Shown here in pieces: positions 580-20,779 of a DNA stretch of 64,000 bases (its first letter is position 1; each line of letters starts with the position of its first letter). The notes under the pieces were generated by a model that did not search any database, had not been told where the DNA came from, and saw only the letters and a program-made list of their open reading frames with translations. The DNA comes from a virus, in IMG/VR virus record IMGVR_UViG_3300045972_000071, positions 23,618 through 87,617 of that record. One strand, 5' to 3'. The translations under genes and the position numbers were made by a program.

Positions 580-1200
580 ATGGGATGCAGTGTATTGGGT
601 TGTACAAACCATGAATTTAGTACAGGGCATGGGGACAGAAAGAAAAGAACAGGTAAATGTAGAAAACATCACTATAATTTACCTAGTAGACACTTGACCA
701 GTGATCCAAATATATATGTGATAGATGGTCCTATATGCAGGATAACGTGCCATAAAAAAGATAACTCTATCGCAGGTTATGCCATAATAGATACAGAAGA
801 TATGGAAAAATGTATTCCTTATAAATGGGGAATAACTTCGGATGGGTATGTAGTAAACGGTAAAAATCAAATTCGCCTGCATCATCTAATTATGAATCAT
901 ATTCCAGATAAAAATCACCCTATAGATCATAAAAATAGAATAAAATTGGATTGCAGAAAAGAGAATATGGAATTATCCACATATTCTAAAAATAATGTGA
1001 ATAGGGATTTAAAAAACAATACTTCCGGTCATAAATGTGTTTATTGGAATAAACACGCTAAATCTTGGGATGTAAGAATAACTAGGAATAAGATATGCAC
1101 TCAATTAGGGTACTACAAAACTCTTGAGAAAGCCATAGAAGTTAGGGATACTTTTTATATCCAGCTTCATAAGGTATTGAACTTAACTGAGACTAACTAG
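580..1200 (+). CDS. HNH homing endonuclease with AP2 domain (cassette 1)
   Basis: Free-standing homing endonuclease of 206 residues. An N-terminal cysteine/histidine cluster (CSVLGC near the start, then CRKHH) suggests a small zinc module. The HNH core contains HHLIMNH, then IDHKNR and N-containing RKENM around residues 100-130. An AP2-like DNA-binding domain follows (SGHKCVYWNKHAKSWDV to about residue 190). The last 11 residues are not AP2-like but reproduce the C-terminus of QueE, so the reading frame runs into an older queE end and uses its stop. Paralogous to the genes at 6004 and 20144. Translation is probably switched by the upstream hairpin. Confidence 0.85.
   Translation: MGCSVLGCTNHEFSTGHGDRKKRTGKCRKHHYNLPSRHLTSDPNIYVIDGPICRITCHKKDNSIAGYAIIDTEDMEKCIPYKWGITSDGYVVNGKNQIRLHHLIMNHIPDKNHPIDHKNRIKLDCRKENMELSTYSKNNVNRDLKNNTSGHKCVYWNKHAKSWDVRITRNKICTQLGYYKTLEKAIEVRDTFYIQLHKVLNLTETN
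1168..1200 (+). repeat. Downstream copy of duplicated queE 3' end
   Basis: Partner of 488-520. It encodes HKVLNLTETN and a TAG stop, here serving as the C-terminus of the HNH protein. The junction seems to fall at a shared His codon: the paralogous AP2 domains end with LHGEF, while this one reads LHKVL. Confidence 0.75.
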
Positions 1201-5962: not shown

Positions 5963-6005
5963 TGATATAATATCCTTCTAACATAAATAATTAGGAGGAT
6001 ATTAT
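5963..6005 (+). promoter_or_regulatory. Promoter plus RBS-hiding hairpin of HNH gene 2
   Basis: Bases 5967-5981 (ATAATATCCTTCTAA) pair with 5991-6005 over 15 bp with one G-U pair and a 9-base loop. The 3' arm holds AGGAGG (5993-5998) and the first two bases of the ATG. An extended -10, TGA plus TATAAT at 5966-5971, overlaps the 5' arm; TTGACT at 5945-5950 may be a closely spaced -35 (15 bases). RNA begun from it, near 5978, would lose nearly all of the 5' arm. Same design as at 524-575. Confidence 0.8.
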
Positions 6006-6786
6006 GTCAGAATGTATTTGGGAAGGTTGCACAGAGGATGGTAATAATAAAGGATACTGTAAAAAACATTATGATAAATGGTATTACAAATTGTGTAGAG
6101 AGAAAGCCGGACTAGCCCAATATACAAATCAAAATCCCATAAGAAAACGGACAAAAATAACCGGTACATGCAATGTGGAGGGATGTGACTCACAAATTCA
6201 CTGTAAGGGTGTTTGCTACAGGCATTATCTACATCTACGAAATCATGGAGAAATTAGGGAGAGAACTAGAATAACTCCTAATGATTTTATCATTGACGGC
6301 GACACCTGTAAAATAGGTTGTTATAACATCTACTGTGATCTAGTAGGTTATGCTTTAATTGATGCCGAAGATGTAGATAGATGCAAACCACATAAATGGT
6401 ATTTTGAAGTAGATGGTTATGTGAGTAGTACAACAGCAGGAAGTTTGCACCATTTTATATTAGGCACTAAACCTAGAAGTGGTGTATTTCCAGATCATAA
6501 AAACAGAGTATGCCATGATAATAGGAAAGATAATTTAAGAATTGCAACCACATCACAAAATGCCTGTAATTCTAAAATAAACTCCCGTAATAAAACAGGA
6601 TATAAGGGTGTTTACTTTAACGGAAAAGAGTTTGTAGTTTATATATGTTCAAACGGTAAAAACAATCTTGTGGGTAAGTACAATACGAAGGAGGAAGCGG
6701 CTATGATTTACAACCAGAAAGCCAAAGAGCTTCACGGAGAGTTTGCATTTCAAAATACTCTCAAAGAGAGTGTGGTCATTGGATAG
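6004..6786 (+). CDS. HNH homing endonuclease with AP2 domain (cassette 2)
   Basis: A 260-residue homing endonuclease and the longest of the three. It has two N-terminal zinc modules (CIWEGC with CKKHY, then CNVEGC with CYRHY), the HNH core with FPDHKNR and NRKDNLR near residues 160-180, and an AP2-like domain (TGYKGVYFNGKEFVVYI) ending AKELHGEFAFQN. It sits between queC and the dpdA-like gene, and its 3' end overlaps the TTG start of the latter by 8 bases. Its own promoter and hairpin lie directly upstream. Confidence 0.87.
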   Translation: MSECIWEGCTEDGNNKGYCKKHYDKWYYKLCREKAGLAQYTNQNPIRKRTKITGTCNVEGCDSQIHCKGVCYRHYLHLRNHGEIRERTRITPNDFIIDGDTCKIGCYNIYCDLVGYALIDAEDVDRCKPHKWYFEVDGYVSSTTAGSLHHFILGTKPRSGVFPDHKNRVCHDNRKDNLRIATTSQNACNSKINSRNKTGYKGVYFNGKEFVVYICSNGKNNLVGKYNTKEEAAMIYNQKAKELHGEFAFQNTLKESVVIG

Positions 6787-11930: not shown

Positions 11931-11939
11931 TCAAAACTG

Positions 11940-11948
11940 TGCTATTAT
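11940..11948 (+). promoter_or_regulatory. Extended -10 promoter after the polymerase gene
   Basis: TGC directly before TATTAT (11943-11948), within TGTGCTATTATCA. The same string occurs at 15279-15290 and a close variant at 24602. No -35 match was seen. Confidence 0.5.
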
Positions 11949-11988
11949 CAAAGTAACAGAAGTGCAAATAAGAAAGTAAGGAGTTATT

Positions 11989-12246
11989 ATGACATCAAAG
12001 AAGGCACAAGCATTTCAAGCTGATCTTGAAGAACTGGTCAAGAAACATGACGTTTTCTTGAACGGTACATTTCAGATGAAGGGCGAAGATGAGGACGACA
12101 TTGCCGTAGTGTCCATCGGACAAGCGTCTATTGGGGATGTTAAATCCAGTATGCATCATCTTCTGGAACAATCCTACAGTATCATTGCAGAAATTCTGAT
12201 CGAAAACATAACTTCGGGAGGGGACGCCAGTGCCACTACACATTGA
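11989..12246 (+). CDS. Small acidic hypothetical protein
   Basis: An 85-residue protein with AAGGAG before the ATG. A helical N-terminus is followed by a strand-rich acidic middle (KGEDEDDIAVVSIGQASIG) and a helical end. No family recognised. It overlaps the clamp loader start by 17 bases, and the two are probably translated together. Confidence 0.7.
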   Translation: MTSKKAQAFQADLEELVKKHDVFLNGTFQMKGEDEDDIAVVSIGQASIGDVKSSMHHLLEQSYSIIAEILIENITSGGDASATTH

Positions 12247-13177
12247 CTGTCGCCCCTCGTCACTTGAAACAGTGATGGGGAATGAGGGAGTTAAAGATGC
12301 CCTCAGAAATAAATTCACGAAAAACCCCGGCACTGTGTTTGATCCACCCCATTCAGTTCTGTTCGTAGGACCATCAGGGTGCGGTAAAACTACTCTCGCA
12401 CGTATTACAGCTACAATGCTCGGATGTGCTCCAGAAGATGTTCAGGAATATAATTCCTCGAATAACAGGGGAATCGACACTATCCGGGAGATTGCACAAA
12501 ACTGTCTTTACTCTCCGACATTCGGCTCAGTGAAAGTTTACATTCTGGACGAAGTGCACCGCATGACAAAAGATGCCCAAAACGCTCTGTTGAAACTGCT
12601 GGAAGATACACCGAAGCATGTTTTCTTTCTGCTTGCAACAACTGACCCGGAAATGCTGATTAAAGCAATACTCACCCGGTGCATGAAATTTGAAGTGAAG
12701 TCATTGCCTAATCCACAAGTGATGAAACTTCTCTGTAATACCGTTCAAGATGCTGGCATTGCACTGACCGACTTCTCTGAAAAAGTGCTCCAACTCATTG
12801 TAAAGACAGCAGAAGGATGCCCTCGTCAAGCTCTCATTCTTCTTGACTCAGTAATTGATATAGAAGATGAAGAGAAAGCACTGGCAGCCGTATCAGAATC
12901 AACGGCAAGCAGTACGGAAAGTCTTGATCTTTGTCGCTTACTGCTTGAAACGAGAAAGAACAGATGGGATGATGCCCGATTCTTGTTGAAGGGATTGATG
13001 GATGATCCTGAGAAGATGCGTTATGGGATTCTCGGATACATGAATGCTGTTCTTATGTCGGACAACTGCAAAGACCCAGATCATGTATCCGGTGTGATTG
13101 ACATGTTCACAGAATCTTTCATGTACTCTGGCAAAGCAGGATTGTCCAATGCAGTATTTCAGGCTTGCAAACTGTGA
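12230..13177 (+). CDS. AAA+ clamp loader subunit (DnaX/gp44-like)
   Basis: A 315-residue AAA+ ATPase that would load the sliding clamp. Start is GTG at 12230 with GGAGG 8 bases upstream. GPSGCGKT near residue 48 is Walker A, ILDEVHRM near 107 is Walker B, LLATTDP is sensor 1 and LTRC near 149 is the SRC-type arginine finger. The C-terminal part is helical (collar-like). It reads as complete, ending QACKL. Bases 13165-13174 at its 3' end are perfectly complementary to 13257-13266 in the following structured stretch. Confidence 0.88.
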   Translation: MPLHIDCRPSSLETVMGNEGVKDALRNKFTKNPGTVFDPPHSVLFVGPSGCGKTTLARITATMLGCAPEDVQEYNSSNNRGIDTIREIAQNCLYSPTFGSVKVYILDEVHRMTKDAQNALLKLLEDTPKHVFFLLATTDPEMLIKAILTRCMKFEVKSLPNPQVMKLLCNTVQDAGIALTDFSEKVLQLIVKTAEGCPRQALILLDSVIDIEDEEKALAAVSESTASSTESLDLCRLLLETRKNRWDDARFLLKGLMDDPEKMRYGILGYMNAVLMSDNCKDPDHVSGVIDMFTESFMYSGKAGLSNAVFQACKL

Positions 13178-13530
13178 TTGAGGGACTCTCAAGTACCGGT
13201 GGATTGGCGAATCTATCGACTGAGGACCTCCGTTGGTGAAGGAGTAGCGACCTCAGCAGTTTGCAATGATATAATACCCGGTGTCGGTAGAAGTCCGACT
13301 ATCTGCATCAAGCTGATGCGGAGAATACCCTTAACAGGTGAAAGATTGACGCTATGCCGGGACACAAGGACTTGGGAGTAGAACCCGCATCGGTAGCATG
13401 GCACCGACTCCCATATGATACCGTACTCTACATGCTGATTAGGCACGTGAATTTCGTGTCAGCTAAACAGAGTTCCTTAAACGGGTAAGGGGATATTGGT
13501 GACTCCCCACTAAATATTATAGGAGATAAC
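13165..13530 (+). ncRNA. Putative structured RNA, copy A
   Basis: About 350 bases without a gene but full of pairing. TTGCAAACTG (13165-13174) pairs with 13257-13266 and encloses TTGAG/CTCAA and CTGAGG/CCTCAG hairpins. GTCGG/CCGAC and GCATCA/TGATGC hairpins follow, then GGGAGT/ACTCCC enclosing CGGT/ACCG, a GCTGA/TCAGC hairpin near 13433-13462, and GGGGA/TCCCC near 13489-13508. GATGCGG (13315-13321) could instead pair with 13385-13391, and GAGTA (13376-13380) with TACTC (13424-13428), a pseudoknot like the P3/P7 core of group I introns. Blocks in the same order recur in copy B. An origin or leader is also possible. Confidence 0.5.
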
Positions 13531-13560
13531 ATGGGTGAATTAATTAAAACAGAAGTGTGA
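13531..13560 (+). CDS. Nine-codon leader peptide coupled to the next gene
   Basis: ATG at 13531 has AGGAG 7 bases upstream and encodes MGELIKTEV before TGA at 13558. The next gene starts at GTG 13557, overlapping this stop, and has no better site of its own. It is either a coupling leader or the true start of the next protein if ribosomes slip back one base. Confidence 0.4.
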   Translation: MGELIKTEV

Positions 13561-13817
13561 TTATCCGAAATCGTAAAAACCTAAGCGAACAGATCCAGAT
13601 CATTATTGACTATGAAACACGCAAGATCGGTGTAGTTCATAATAGAGGAATGGAGATGATCGTGATTAGATCCGTTCTGTCTAATGATGTTGCTGTGTCC
13701 TATATTGAAACGGAAACTGAAAAGGGCCCTATTCCAACTAAAGACCCTTTTGATCCTGCTAGAATTAAAGTCGGCAATGGAATTCAAGATTGCACGTTCA
13801 CAACTGATAAGCCATGA
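13557..13817 (+). CDS. Small hypothetical protein
   Basis: An 86-residue strand-rich protein (IQIIIDYETRKIGVVHNRG, then a second sheet) starting at GTG. The start is inferred from overlap with the nine-codon leader. No family recognised. It overlaps the next gene by 4 bases (ATGA). Confidence 0.6.
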   Translation: MIIRNRKNLSEQIQIIIDYETRKIGVVHNRGMEMIVIRSVLSNDVAVSYIETETEKGPIPTKDPFDPARIKVGNGIQDCTFTTDKP

Positions 13818-14059
13818 TACAACTACGTGTAAATACAGAGGTATTGGCTCCTTCCCTTGAAGAAGCTGAGTGGTTACGGGACTTGCTACAAAATCCTGTG
13901 TACGAAGACGAAACCCGCTCTGAAAAGAGAATGCGGGAAATATGGCACCCTGCTCTGGATGTGTACATAAAAACGCTGAAAGCACCTATGCACCCACAAT
14001 GTGGTACTTGTTTCAGAGATAAACCAGATCATGATTATGATGACGACATCCCCTTTTAA
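13814..14059 (+). CDS. Small hypothetical protein with acidic tail
   Basis: An 81-residue protein overlapping the previous stop. It is helical (SLEEAEWLRDLLQNPVYED), has one CGTC motif near residue 64 and ends in an Asp-rich tail finishing DDDIPF. Such a tail can compete for DNA or for an SSB partner, but no function is assigned. Confidence 0.6.
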   Translation: MIQLRVNTEVLAPSLEEAEWLRDLLQNPVYEDETRSEKRMREIWHPALDVYIKTLKAPMHPQCGTCFRDKPDHDYDDDIPF

Positions 14060-14068
14060 GGAGAAGGT

Positions 14069-14770
14069 ATGAGTGAAAACAAAGATGAAGTTTTAAAGAT
14101 GCTTGGAATGATTAAACGCCCCGGGATGGATAAACTGATTGATTGGTTGTCAAATGAAACTGATTACTTCACGTCTCCGTCCTCTACGAAGTATCACGGC
14201 AACTACGAAGAGGGGTTAATTGACCACTGTCTGAACGTCTATGACTCACTCGCACTGCTCAATGCTGAATTTGGTGATAATGAGTATAGCGAGGAATCAT
14301 TGATGGTCGTAGCCTTGCTCCATGACATGTGCAAATGCAATACATACATTCCGAATGATGATCCTGCTTCCGATGCTCAGATCAAATATGCCCAGAGTTT
14401 GTTAGATCAGAATGGGAGAGAACCTCTTCCGAAAGTCAAACTCACAAAATGGTATGTCAGTAAGGTCATAGATCATCTGAAAAGCGGTGAAGGTGAGTTC
14501 CCTGAATTTGCAGCCGCATATAAAGTGAAAGATAAGTTTCCAATGGGACACGGAGAGAAGTCTCTATACCTCATTCAGAAGTTTATCCGTCTTTCTGATG
14601 AAGAAGCACTGGCAATACGTTGGCATCTCGGTGCGTTCGATCCTGGCTTTCACTTCGGATACCCCACAGGTTTCGCCACTCAGCAAGCAGTACGGGAATG
14701 TCCTCTTGTTACAATGACGATTTCAGCAGACTTTCTGGCCACTTGGATGGTCGATATTACAGTAAAATAG
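14069..14770 (+). CDS. HD-domain phosphohydrolase
   Basis: A 233-residue protein with the HD-superfamily metal site: YHGNYEEGLIDHCLNVY gives the first His, ALLHDMCK near residue 88 the HD pair, and a later HL/GHGEKSL segment the following ligands. The superfamily includes nucleotidases and dNTP or oligonucleotide hydrolases; phage members of this length resemble YhaM/YfbR-like enzymes. Its place among replication genes suggests nucleotide metabolism. AAGGAG precedes the ATG. Confidence 0.75.
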   Translation: MSENKDEVLKMLGMIKRPGMDKLIDWLSNETDYFTSPSSTKYHGNYEEGLIDHCLNVYDSLALLNAEFGDNEYSEESLMVVALLHDMCKCNTYIPNDDPASDAQIKYAQSLLDQNGREPLPKVKLTKWYVSKVIDHLKSGEGEFPEFAAAYKVKDKFPMGHGEKSLYLIQKFIRLSDEEALAIRWHLGAFDPGFHFGYPTGFATQQAVRECPLVTMTISADFLATWMVDITVK

Positions 14771-14778
14771 GAGAACAC

Positions 14779-14964
14779 ATGTTTGAGCCGAAACTGAATG
14801 CACTGGTAGTTATCAAGAAGGGTAAATGTGATTGTGATGGATTATCTGCAGGGACTGTTGGATTTATAAAGTTCATTGAGCATCCAGATGCGTTCATGGT
14901 ACAAAAGCGTGATAGTGACAAGATACTGTGGCACTGTCGGGAATGTGTAACAGCATTCAAATAA
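14779..14964 (+). CDS. Small KOW/SH3-like protein with cysteine pairs
   Basis: A 61-residue protein from ATG 14779, which follows AGGAGA; longer readings of this frame run back into the HD gene without a binding site. KCDCDGLSAGTVGFIKFIE with alternating strands suggests a small beta barrel, and cysteines at both ends (CDC and CREC) might bind zinc. Function unknown. The structured stretch copy B follows directly. Confidence 0.6.
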   Translation: MFEPKLNALVVIKKGKCDCDGLSAGTVGFIKFIEHPDAFMVQKRDSDKILWHCRECVTAFK

Positions 14965-15245
14965 TATTAGCAGGGTTGGACAATGCTGAATGATTTCTCC
15001 ACTCATAAGCCCTGAAGGACACAACCGTTCATCGCTCCTGTTAGCTTCGCCGCTATAACGACAAGGTGACAAGTGTGTTGGTATAAGGAGAAATTGAGAA
15101 ATGTATGATACGTCATTCAGTCCCGGTGGGCGGGAAAACGTCAGGTGGGAGAGAAACCCATTGTAATGGTAGCCAATCCATTACTTAGTGGCAATGAGAC
15201 ACTGCCACATGAAGAACAATACTCTATAAGAAAATGCGAGCCCAC
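14951..15245 (+). ncRNA. Putative structured RNA, copy B
   Basis: About 290 bases with no gene. Pairings seen: CAGCATT (14951-14957) with AATGCTG (14981-14987), TTTCTCC near 14994 with GGAGAAA near 15088, CCCG/CGGG (15122-15134), GTAATGG/CCATTAC (15163-15184) and GTGGCA/TGCCAC (15188-15208). It shares blocks with copy A in the same order: CCCGGTG, CGGGA-AC, TGGGAG with AACCC, GGTAGC, CAYATGA and TACTCTA. The CGGGA to TGGGAG distance is 15 in both copies. AGAG (15150-15153) can pair with CTCT (15222-15225), as GAGTA pairs with TACTC in copy A. Confidence 0.5.
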
Positions 15246-15278
15246 TAGCTAATTTTATTAAAAGGTAGAATAAAGATG

Positions 15279-15287
15279 TGCTATTAT
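15279..15287 (+). promoter_or_regulatory. Extended -10 promoter before the 15322 gene
   Basis: TGC plus TATTAT (15282-15287) inside TGTGCTATTATCA, identical over 13 bases to the site at 11938. No clear -35. It separates structured RNA copy B from the SSB/RecA operon. Confidence 0.5.
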
Positions 15288-15321
15288 CATTATGTAAGAG
15301 ATTGAATTGAAAGGAGAAATT

Positions 15322-20143: not shown

Positions 20144-20779
20144 ATGAGAGGTAAGAAAGTATGTAAAATTGAAGGATGTGGTGCTTACTGTTTTGGTAAT
20201 GGTCTGTGTGGCAAGCATTATAGACAAATGCGGGATTACGGTAAAATATTTGCACGAACTATAAAAGACCCAAATGATTTTATAATAGATGGTTCTATAT
20301 GCAGAATAGGATGTTATGATTTGAAACATAATTTAAAAGGATATATAATAATAGATGCAGAGGACAGTGAAAAATGTAAACCGTTCAAATGGAATATGGG
20401 AACCGGTGGTCCTGTAGCTAAAGGAATAGTTTTGACTAATTTGATAATGAATAATGACCCAACTACAAAATTGGTAGTGGATCACAAAGATAGGAATACT
20501 TGGGATAATAGGAAAGACAACCTCAGAATATGTACAGTTAAGGAAAACGCCAGAAATAGGGTTCATCCTAAAAATAAATCAGGTTACCGTGGAGTATCTT
20601 GGAGTAATAAAGAAAATAAATGGATTGCCACGATTCAACACGATAGTAAGCAAATGAGATTAGGATGTTTTACCGATATAATCGAAGCGGCAAAAATGTA
20701 TAATATGATGGCAAAGGAGCTACACGGTGAGTTTGCGGTTCTGAATAAAATTCCACTTATTAGGAGAAGAAATGGTTGA
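20144..20779 (+). CDS. HNH homing endonuclease with AP2 domain (cassette 3)
   Basis: A 211-residue paralogue of the genes at 580 and 6004. It has one zinc module (CKIEGC with CGKHY), the HNH core with VVDHKDR and NRKDNLR near residues 105-130, and an AP2-like domain (SGYRGVSWSNKENKWIATI) ending MAKELHGEFAVLNKI. The final codons (LIRRRNG) provide the ribosome binding site AGGAGA and overlap the ATG of the next gene by 8 bases, so cassette and neighbour are translationally linked. Confidence 0.87.
   Translation: MRGKKVCKIEGCGAYCFGNGLCGKHYRQMRDYGKIFARTIKDPNDFIIDGSICRIGCYDLKHNLKGYIIIDAEDSEKCKPFKWNMGTGGPVAKGIVLTNLIMNNDPTTKLVVDHKDRNTWDNRKDNLRICTVKENARNRVHPKNKSGYRGVSWSNKENKWIATIQHDSKQMRLGCFTDIIEAAKMYNMMAKELHGEFAVLNKIPLIRRRNG

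What the first reader, a model, noticed from the sequence alone, without database searches (positions are those of the whole stretch)
13165..15245. Two gene-free stretches look like diverged copies of one structured RNA
Copy A (13178-13530) and copy B (14965-15245) share blocks in the same order: CCCGGTG, CGGGA-AC, TGGGAG with AACCC, GGTAGC, CA(T/C)ATGA and TACTCTA. CGGGA to TGGGAG is 15 bases in both. Copies differ by whole hairpins inserted between blocks, and a TGGGAG-block to TACTCT pairing exists in both with different bases (GAGTA/TACTC, AGAG/CTCT), hinting at covariation. No known phage RNA could be matched by eye. The order of helices loosely recalls a group I intron core, yet both flanking genes look complete.
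Basis: seen in the sequence. Interest (0 to 1): 0.78.

Follow-up and report, generated by a model that had tools for sequence, protein, structure and literature searches.

The report
New small structured RNA in phages
One of the two gene-free stretches contains a small folded RNA that recurs in at least four other viral genomes (three of them among tRNA genes) and matches no known RNA family, while the claim that the second stretch is another copy of it does not hold up.

Summary
Gapped alignments and chains of shared words between A and B score no better than shuffled sequence, and B has no recognisable relative or gene remnant.

Stretch A does hold a real structured RNA, at 13277-13361 (+), here called K-RNA. 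A homologue lies in a related phage (L164:3422-3515) at a different site. A word-pair scan of IMG/VR then found three more distinct copies (L242, L244=L250, L258), all inside viral tRNA gene clusters. The five share one fold: a closing stem, a hairpin with loop UAGAAGU, a second stem, and a strand AAAGRUUGAYGCU. Of 81 testable base-pair cells 95% pair, and 12 of 17 pairs change on both sides, against about 6 in shuffles. The model scores them 54-81 bits; decoys reach at most 21. Rfam has no match. No copy was found in 84,980 prokaryotic species or in 18 well-known or huge phages, within stated limits.

Most likely it is a small stable phage RNA cut from longer transcripts and acting in trans, in the manner of T4 RNA C/D. 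That function is inferred.

The parts
13277..13361 (+). K-RNA: conserved structured RNA, whole fold (P1 to P1')
   Evidence: Covariance model R1 match 54.2 bits, E 2.7e-11 in 1.42 Mb (the window copy is one of the five training sequences); folds at z -3.5; homologues L164, L242, L244, L258; covariation
13277..13283 (+). K-RNA closing stem P1, 5' strand (CCCGG plus UG)
   Evidence: Pairs with 13355-13361; compensatory changes in 6 of 7 pairs; P1 runs on by 4, 5 and 5 further pairs outside the model in L164, L242 and L244
13284..13298 (+). K-RNA hairpin P2 with 7-nt loop UAGAAGU at 13288-13294
   Evidence: Stem paired in 5 of 5 sequences with changes on both sides. Loop identical in all five, but the word was part of the search pattern for three of them
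13302..13322 (+). Optional variable hairpin (CUGCAUC..GAUGCGG) between P2 and P3
   Evidence: Minimum-energy fold; a different hairpin in L164 and none in L242
13326..13340 (+). K-RNA stem P3, short in this copy (UACC/GGUG)
   Evidence: Minimum-energy fold; P3 covaries across the five
13341..13353 (+). Conserved unpaired strand AAAGAUUGACGCU
   Evidence: Conserved as AAAGRUUGAYGCU in all five; partly the search pattern
13178..13531 (+). Gene-free stretch A in which K-RNA is embedded; the rest has no detected homologue
   Evidence: strict A to L164 alignment covers K-RNA only
14965..15321 (+).
12230..13177 (+). Clamp-loader gene upstream of A, complete
   Evidence: Pfam DNA_pol3_delta2 and AAA; ends as in relative L124
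14782..14964 (+). Small gene upstream of B, complete
   Evidence: Same C-terminal end as the homologues in L121 and L122

Best explanation
The window carries one copy (13277-13361, +) of an undescribed family of small phage RNAs, K-RNA. It is read out within a longer transcript: the replication operon here, tRNA clusters in three other viruses. It folds into a compact three-helix RNA in which the closing stem runs directly into a hairpin with a UAGAAGU loop. It most likely persists as a small stable RNA after its flanks are trimmed, in tRNA clusters by the same nucleases that mature the neighbouring tRNAs, and acts in trans by binding a host or phage protein or the translation machinery through its conserved loop and its AAAGRUUGAYGCU strand. 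Shown here: existence, fold, covariation, strand and context. Inferred: transcription, processing, trans action. The partner is unknown. Stretch B is a separate, unexplained gene-free insert.
For: The A to L164 match is beyond any shuffle (0/1000). Three further members were found by words in the P2 loop and the 3' strand; stems P1 and P3 were not part of that pattern, yet they pair in the new sequences. Overall 95.1% of cells pair, 12 of 17 pairs change on both sides and 21 cells are compensatory, against shuffled means of 70.7%, 6.1 and 7.6 (0/500 each), with collapse when partners are slid by 1-3 columns. RNAalifold finds essentially the same fold unaided. P1 extends 4-5 pairs beyond the model in three members. 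Scores separate cleanly, 54-81 bits against at most 20.7 for loci picked for carrying the same words. K lies on the same strand as its neighbours in every case. In L242 it fills a 91-nt slot between two tRNA genes, 6 and 13 nt away; in L244 it ends 7 nt before a tRNA gene. One strong copy per record. Related phages carry it at different sites: after the clamp loader here, after the clamp gene in L164.
Against: No expression data. Only five members, and the invariance of the loop and 3' strand is partly a product of the search words. The L258 copy does not fold stably on its own (z +0.6) and its P1 is weak. In the window copy P3 is short. No tRNA genes were found in the window's record, so tRNA-type processing cannot explain release there.
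Confidence: 0.5

Rival explanations
1. K-RNA is a new self-cleaving or RNA-processing ribozyme that cuts polycistronic phage transcripts, for example to separate tRNA units.
For: Small size, stems of freely varying length and sequence, an optional hairpin, and conserved bases gathered in one loop and one junction strand; sits between transcript units in L242 and L244.
Against: No Rfam ribozyme model matches. No cleavage site can be read from five sequences. Host RNase P and RNase Z already mature tRNAs.
Confidence: 0.2
2. K-RNA is a cis-acting element (processing signal, stabiliser or leader) for the downstream unit.
For: Lies upstream of a gene in the window and in L164 and just before a tRNA gene in L244.
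Against: The downstream unit differs each time: an ORF in the window and L164, tRNA-Leu in L244, tRNA-Arg in L242. Such strong sequence conservation in loop and junction is more than a stabiliser needs.
Confidence: 0.2
3. A and B are two diverged copies of one large RNA.
For: Shared words in the same order; the pattern CGGGA..GGGAG..ACCC occurs twice in the window against 0.02 expected.
Against: Alignment and word-chain scores are at chance level; B has no K-RNA; the proposed covariation keeps one strand unchanged; two blocks in A are K-RNA's own closing stem.
Confidence: 0.05
4. A and B are group I introns or their remains.
For: In B a GGGTT/AACCC pairing gives the helix order P3-P4-P5-P6-P7-P3'-P8-P7' (read by hand).
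Against: No Intron_gpI match at E up to 10; no split gene, since both upstream genes end as in relatives; P7 pairing shifts register between A and B; no convincing P1 found by eye.
Confidence: 0.03

Closest known systems
Phage T4 RNA C and RNA D (species 1 and 2 RNAs)
   Same: Small phage RNAs encoded next to tRNA genes (AF158101); function unknown (PMC3014915, PMC9697503)
   Different: No significant match to the K-RNA model: 4.5-4.9 bits on the transcribed strand with filters off, best 10.2 bits on the opposite strand, none in whole T4. The UAGAAGU hairpin and the conserved strand are absent as a unit
GOLLD and ROOL RNAs
   Same: Structured phage or prophage RNAs of unknown function, often near tRNA islands (PMC12286853)
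   Different: Those are several hundred nucleotides long with elaborate folds and are in Rfam; K-RNA is about 75-108 nt and matches neither
Small nucleolytic ribozymes (hammerhead, pistol, twister-sister, hatchet)
   Same: Similar size, with conserved bases confined to loops and junctions of variable stems
   Different: No match to any Rfam ribozyme model; cleavage untested
tRNA T-arm (resemblance from memory, not tested)
   Same: 7-nt loop closed by an invariant G-C pair with U at loop position 1 and A at position 5, on a hairpin continuous with the closing stem
   Different: The hairpin follows the 5' strand of the closing stem instead of preceding its 3' strand; closing-stem length varies; ARAGORN calls no tRNA at K

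Membership tests
K-RNA family (this report) | Closing stem P1 running directly into a 4-5 bp hairpin with loop UAGAAGU | tested here: met
   Window 13277-13298
K-RNA family (this report) | Second stem P3 followed by AAAGRUUGAYGCU leading into P1' | tested here: met
   13326-13361; model R1 54.2 bits, the window copy being a training sequence; P3 is short in this copy
K-RNA family (this report), stretch B | Match to model R1 | tested here: not met
   Best 6.5 bits, on the opposite strand, filters off
Group I intron (Rfam Intron_gpI) | Covariance-model match | tested here: not met
   None at E up to 10 over 13100-15320
Group I intron | Interrupts a gene whose exons join | tested here: not met
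   Flanking genes end as in uninterrupted relatives
GOLLD, ROOL, OLE and the rest of Rfam 15 | Match to the curated model | tested here: not met
   No family reached its threshold in the window; no match overlaps a K-RNA at E up to 10 in the window or E up to 2 in L242, L244, L258 and L251
T4 RNA C / RNA D | Sequence and structure homology | tested here: not met
   Chance-level scores
Self-cleaving ribozyme | Site-specific cleavage of the RNA alone | not testable with these tools
   Needs an in vitro assay
Stable small RNA | Discrete transcript in infected cells | not testable with these tools
   No expression data held

The most novel reading that the evidence does not exclude
K-RNA is a new functional class: a small phage ribozyme or a trans-acting RNA that interferes with host translation, tRNA processing or tRNA-targeting defence. 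It spreads as a movable unit between unrelated phages and was lodged in a replication operon here.
Probability: 0.2. Interest if true: 0.8.

Novelty: new variant of a known kind. Interest (0 to 1): 0.5.

Why it matters
Phages carry small structured RNAs beside their tRNA genes whose roles have stayed unknown, T4 RNA C and D among them. A short RNA with a simple fold, a supported covariation pattern and a searchable model gives a compact subject for asking what such RNAs do. That it sits in tRNA clusters of some viruses and in the replication region of others suggests a mobile, self-contained function. It also shows how a by-eye reading can be right that an RNA is present and wrong about which copies belong together.

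Tried and rejected
A = B by alignment, by word chains and by hand-drawn helices: at chance. Hand-drawn helices for A and B, including a terminal stem ATTAGC/GCTAAT in B and a CGGTA/TACCG-type helix near TACTC: no homologues to test them, left out. Pattern scans built on the A/B blocks: only coding or tRNA matches. Group I intron: rejected. Interruptions in polymerase genes of relatives: those read are inteins, not introns. L165:15121-15386, a gene-free stretch before the homologue of the ORF that follows A: no relation to A, B or K. B or A as a decayed gene: no protein match. T4 RNA C/D as homologues: rejected. Pairing of K with neighbouring tRNAs: nothing consistent (14-nt run in L242 at 3/60 shuffles, none beyond chance in L258). 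Near DNA relatives in annotated phages: none. K in 33 further large viral records: none above 17 bits.

Full report
What was given. The finding says that two gene-free stretches, A (13178-13530) and B (14965-15245), are diverged copies of one structured RNA, perhaps loosely like a group I intron. The window is bases 23618-87617 of an 87,617-base virus record: a phage with a family-A DNA polymerase, sliding clamp, clamp loader, RecA-like protein and several HNH homing endonucleases (names other than the clamp loader, the HNH genes and the HD-domain gene are my reading of the translations).

Checking the observation. Every word is there, in the stated order and with the stated 15-base spacing. 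The flanking genes are complete: the clamp loader ends ...ACKL* against ...ACKV* in relative L121/L124, and the small gene before B ends as in L121 and L122. Relatives have only 49-54 nt where B sits and 156 nt of unrelated sequence where A sits. So both stretches are gains of this lineage or losses in the others. The similarity between A and B itself is not more than shuffled sequence gives: 743, 363 and 205 of 1000 shuffles reach the observed alignment score with strict, intermediate and loose gaps, 502 of 2000 in an earlier run, and word chains reach it in 117 to 558 of 1000. The proposed covariation (GAGTA/TACTC against AGAG/CTCT) keeps the 3' strand TACTCTA unchanged and shifts register, so it is not covariation. 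Nothing in Rfam matches, even at E = 10, apart from one antisense chance match at 14647-14669.

Finding homologues. The neighbouring HD-domain gene and the gene after B gave a few relatives, and a polymerase alignment gave 80. A word-size-7 search of these found an exact 19-base match to A in a gene-free stretch of L164, after its clamp gene. The match extends through TGTCGGTAGAAGTCCGAC and TGAAAGATTGAYGCT, with the enclosing stem changed from CCCGG/CCGGG to CTTAG/CTAAG. A strict A to L164 alignment beats all 1000 shuffles. A pattern of two words, TAGAAGTC and AAAGNTTGAYGC 30-60 bases apart, run over 2.9 million viral contigs, returned 25 stretches. Two were L164 itself (as L251) and a duplicate (L250 of L244). 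Three new ones, L242, L244 and L258, are non-coding and have the hairpin. Among 168 word-pair matches gathered from all scans, only these and the two known copies have the complete hairpin together with a closing stem and lie outside open frames.

The RNA. On the five sequences the fold is a closing stem P1 (6-7 pairs in the model), a 4-5 bp hairpin P2 with loop UAGAAGU, a variable stretch that holds an extra hairpin in some copies, a second stem P3, and a strand AAAGRUUGAYGCU leading back into P1. The alignment was prepared by hand: optional hairpins were left out and N was placed at two junction positions. Of 81 cells 95.1% pair; 12 of 17 pairs show changes on both sides; shuffles give 70.7% and 6.1, and none of 500 reaches the observed values; sliding the partners by one to three columns destroys the signal. 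P1 and P3 were not part of the search pattern, so their pairing in the three new members is an independent test. RNAalifold returns essentially the same fold unaided. P1 continues outward for 4, 5 and 5 more pairs in L164, L242 and L244, outside the modelled region. The window copy folds at z -3.5 and L164 at -3.4; L244 at -2.4, L242 at -1.4 and L258 at +0.6 are weaker on their own.

Distribution. The covariance model scores the five, all of which trained it, at 54-81 bits in 1.42 Mb, the next match being 16 bits. Loci selected for carrying the same words reach at most 20.7 bits. Each record has one strong copy. Five relatives of the window phage (G006-G010) have none. A scan of 84,980 prokaryotic species for the word pair gave no match with a complete hairpin. 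Eighteen whole phage records, including T4, T5, KVP40, phage G, phiKZ, RaK2 and three huge metagenomic phages, have none (with strict filters), and 33 further viral records have none.

Context. In L242 the RNA fills a slot between two tRNA-Arg genes, 6 and 13 nt from them. In L244 it ends 7 nt before tRNA-Leu. In L258 it lies within a cluster of 22 tRNA genes. It is always on the same strand as its neighbours. The window's record has no tRNA gene, and K-RNA sits behind the clamp loader; in the related phage L164 it sits behind the clamp gene instead. Different sites in related phages suggest that it moves or was gained more than once.

How it most likely works. The fold, strand and context point to an RNA that works as RNA. 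Because the neighbour differs each time (two different ORFs, tRNA-Leu, tRNA-Arg), a cis-regulatory role is less likely than a product that is cut out and acts in trans. The P1-P2 stack with its 7-nt loop resembles, from memory, a tRNA acceptor and T-arm stack with the strands connected the other way round. That is a lead, not a test. A self-cleaving ribozyme remains possible: stems vary freely while one loop and one junction strand are conserved. No partner can be named.

Stretch B. It has no K-RNA, no protein remnant, no DNA relative at useful significance and only ordinary folding energy (z -1.3 to -1.8). It remains an unexplained gene-free insert.

Comparison with the known. T4 RNA C and D, GOLLD and ROOL are the nearest kinds: phage RNAs near tRNA genes with unknown roles. 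None is a homologue by the tests available. K-RNA is therefore best described as a new family within a known kind. It is moderately interesting: solid as a structured RNA, open as to function.

Noticed in passing
L165:9785-9995: Gene-free stretch just upstream of the polymerase gene of a related phage folds far better than shuffled sequence (z -7.7); unrelated in sequence to A, B or K-RNA.
   Followed up: partly
L164:3530-3645: Directly after its K-RNA this phage has a long helix, GTAGCAAAGGAAG pairing with CTTCCTTTGCTAC, so the whole gene-free stretch is strongly structured (z -3.9).
   Followed up: no
L160:12641-12820: Gene-free stretch before the clamp-loader gene with a 13-bp terminal helix (CAAGCGGCTCTGC / GCAGAGTCGTTTG).
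   Followed up: partly
L165:15121-15386: Gene-free stretch after an HNH-type gene and before the homologue of window ORF 13557; no relation to A, B or K-RNA found.
   Followed up: partly
window 13532-13570: The ORF after A starts ATG...GAAGTGTGA and overlaps a GTG start in another frame; in relative L121 the homologous protein is one continuous frame, so this copy has a frameshift or re-initiates.
   Followed up: no
L164, L193, L194, L211, L217 (polymerase gene): The family-A DNA polymerase genes of several relatives are interrupted at different points by intein-like insertions that keep the reading frame.
   Followed up: partly
window 580-1200, 6004-6786, 20144-20779: Three free-standing HNH homing endonuclease genes (the third with an AP2-like domain below its cut-off); relatives carry similar genes at other sites.
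   Followed up: partly
window 11938-11951 and 15278-15289: A repeated promoter-like element (TGTGCTATTATC) precedes two genes; a similar one stands before the homologous gene in L122 and L159.
   Followed up: no
L258:4369-4742 (-): A weak match to bacterial RNase P RNA (37 bits, E 2.5e-8, below the curated threshold of 100) near the tRNA cluster of this viral contig; possibly a phage-encoded, diverged RNase P RNA.
   Followed up: no
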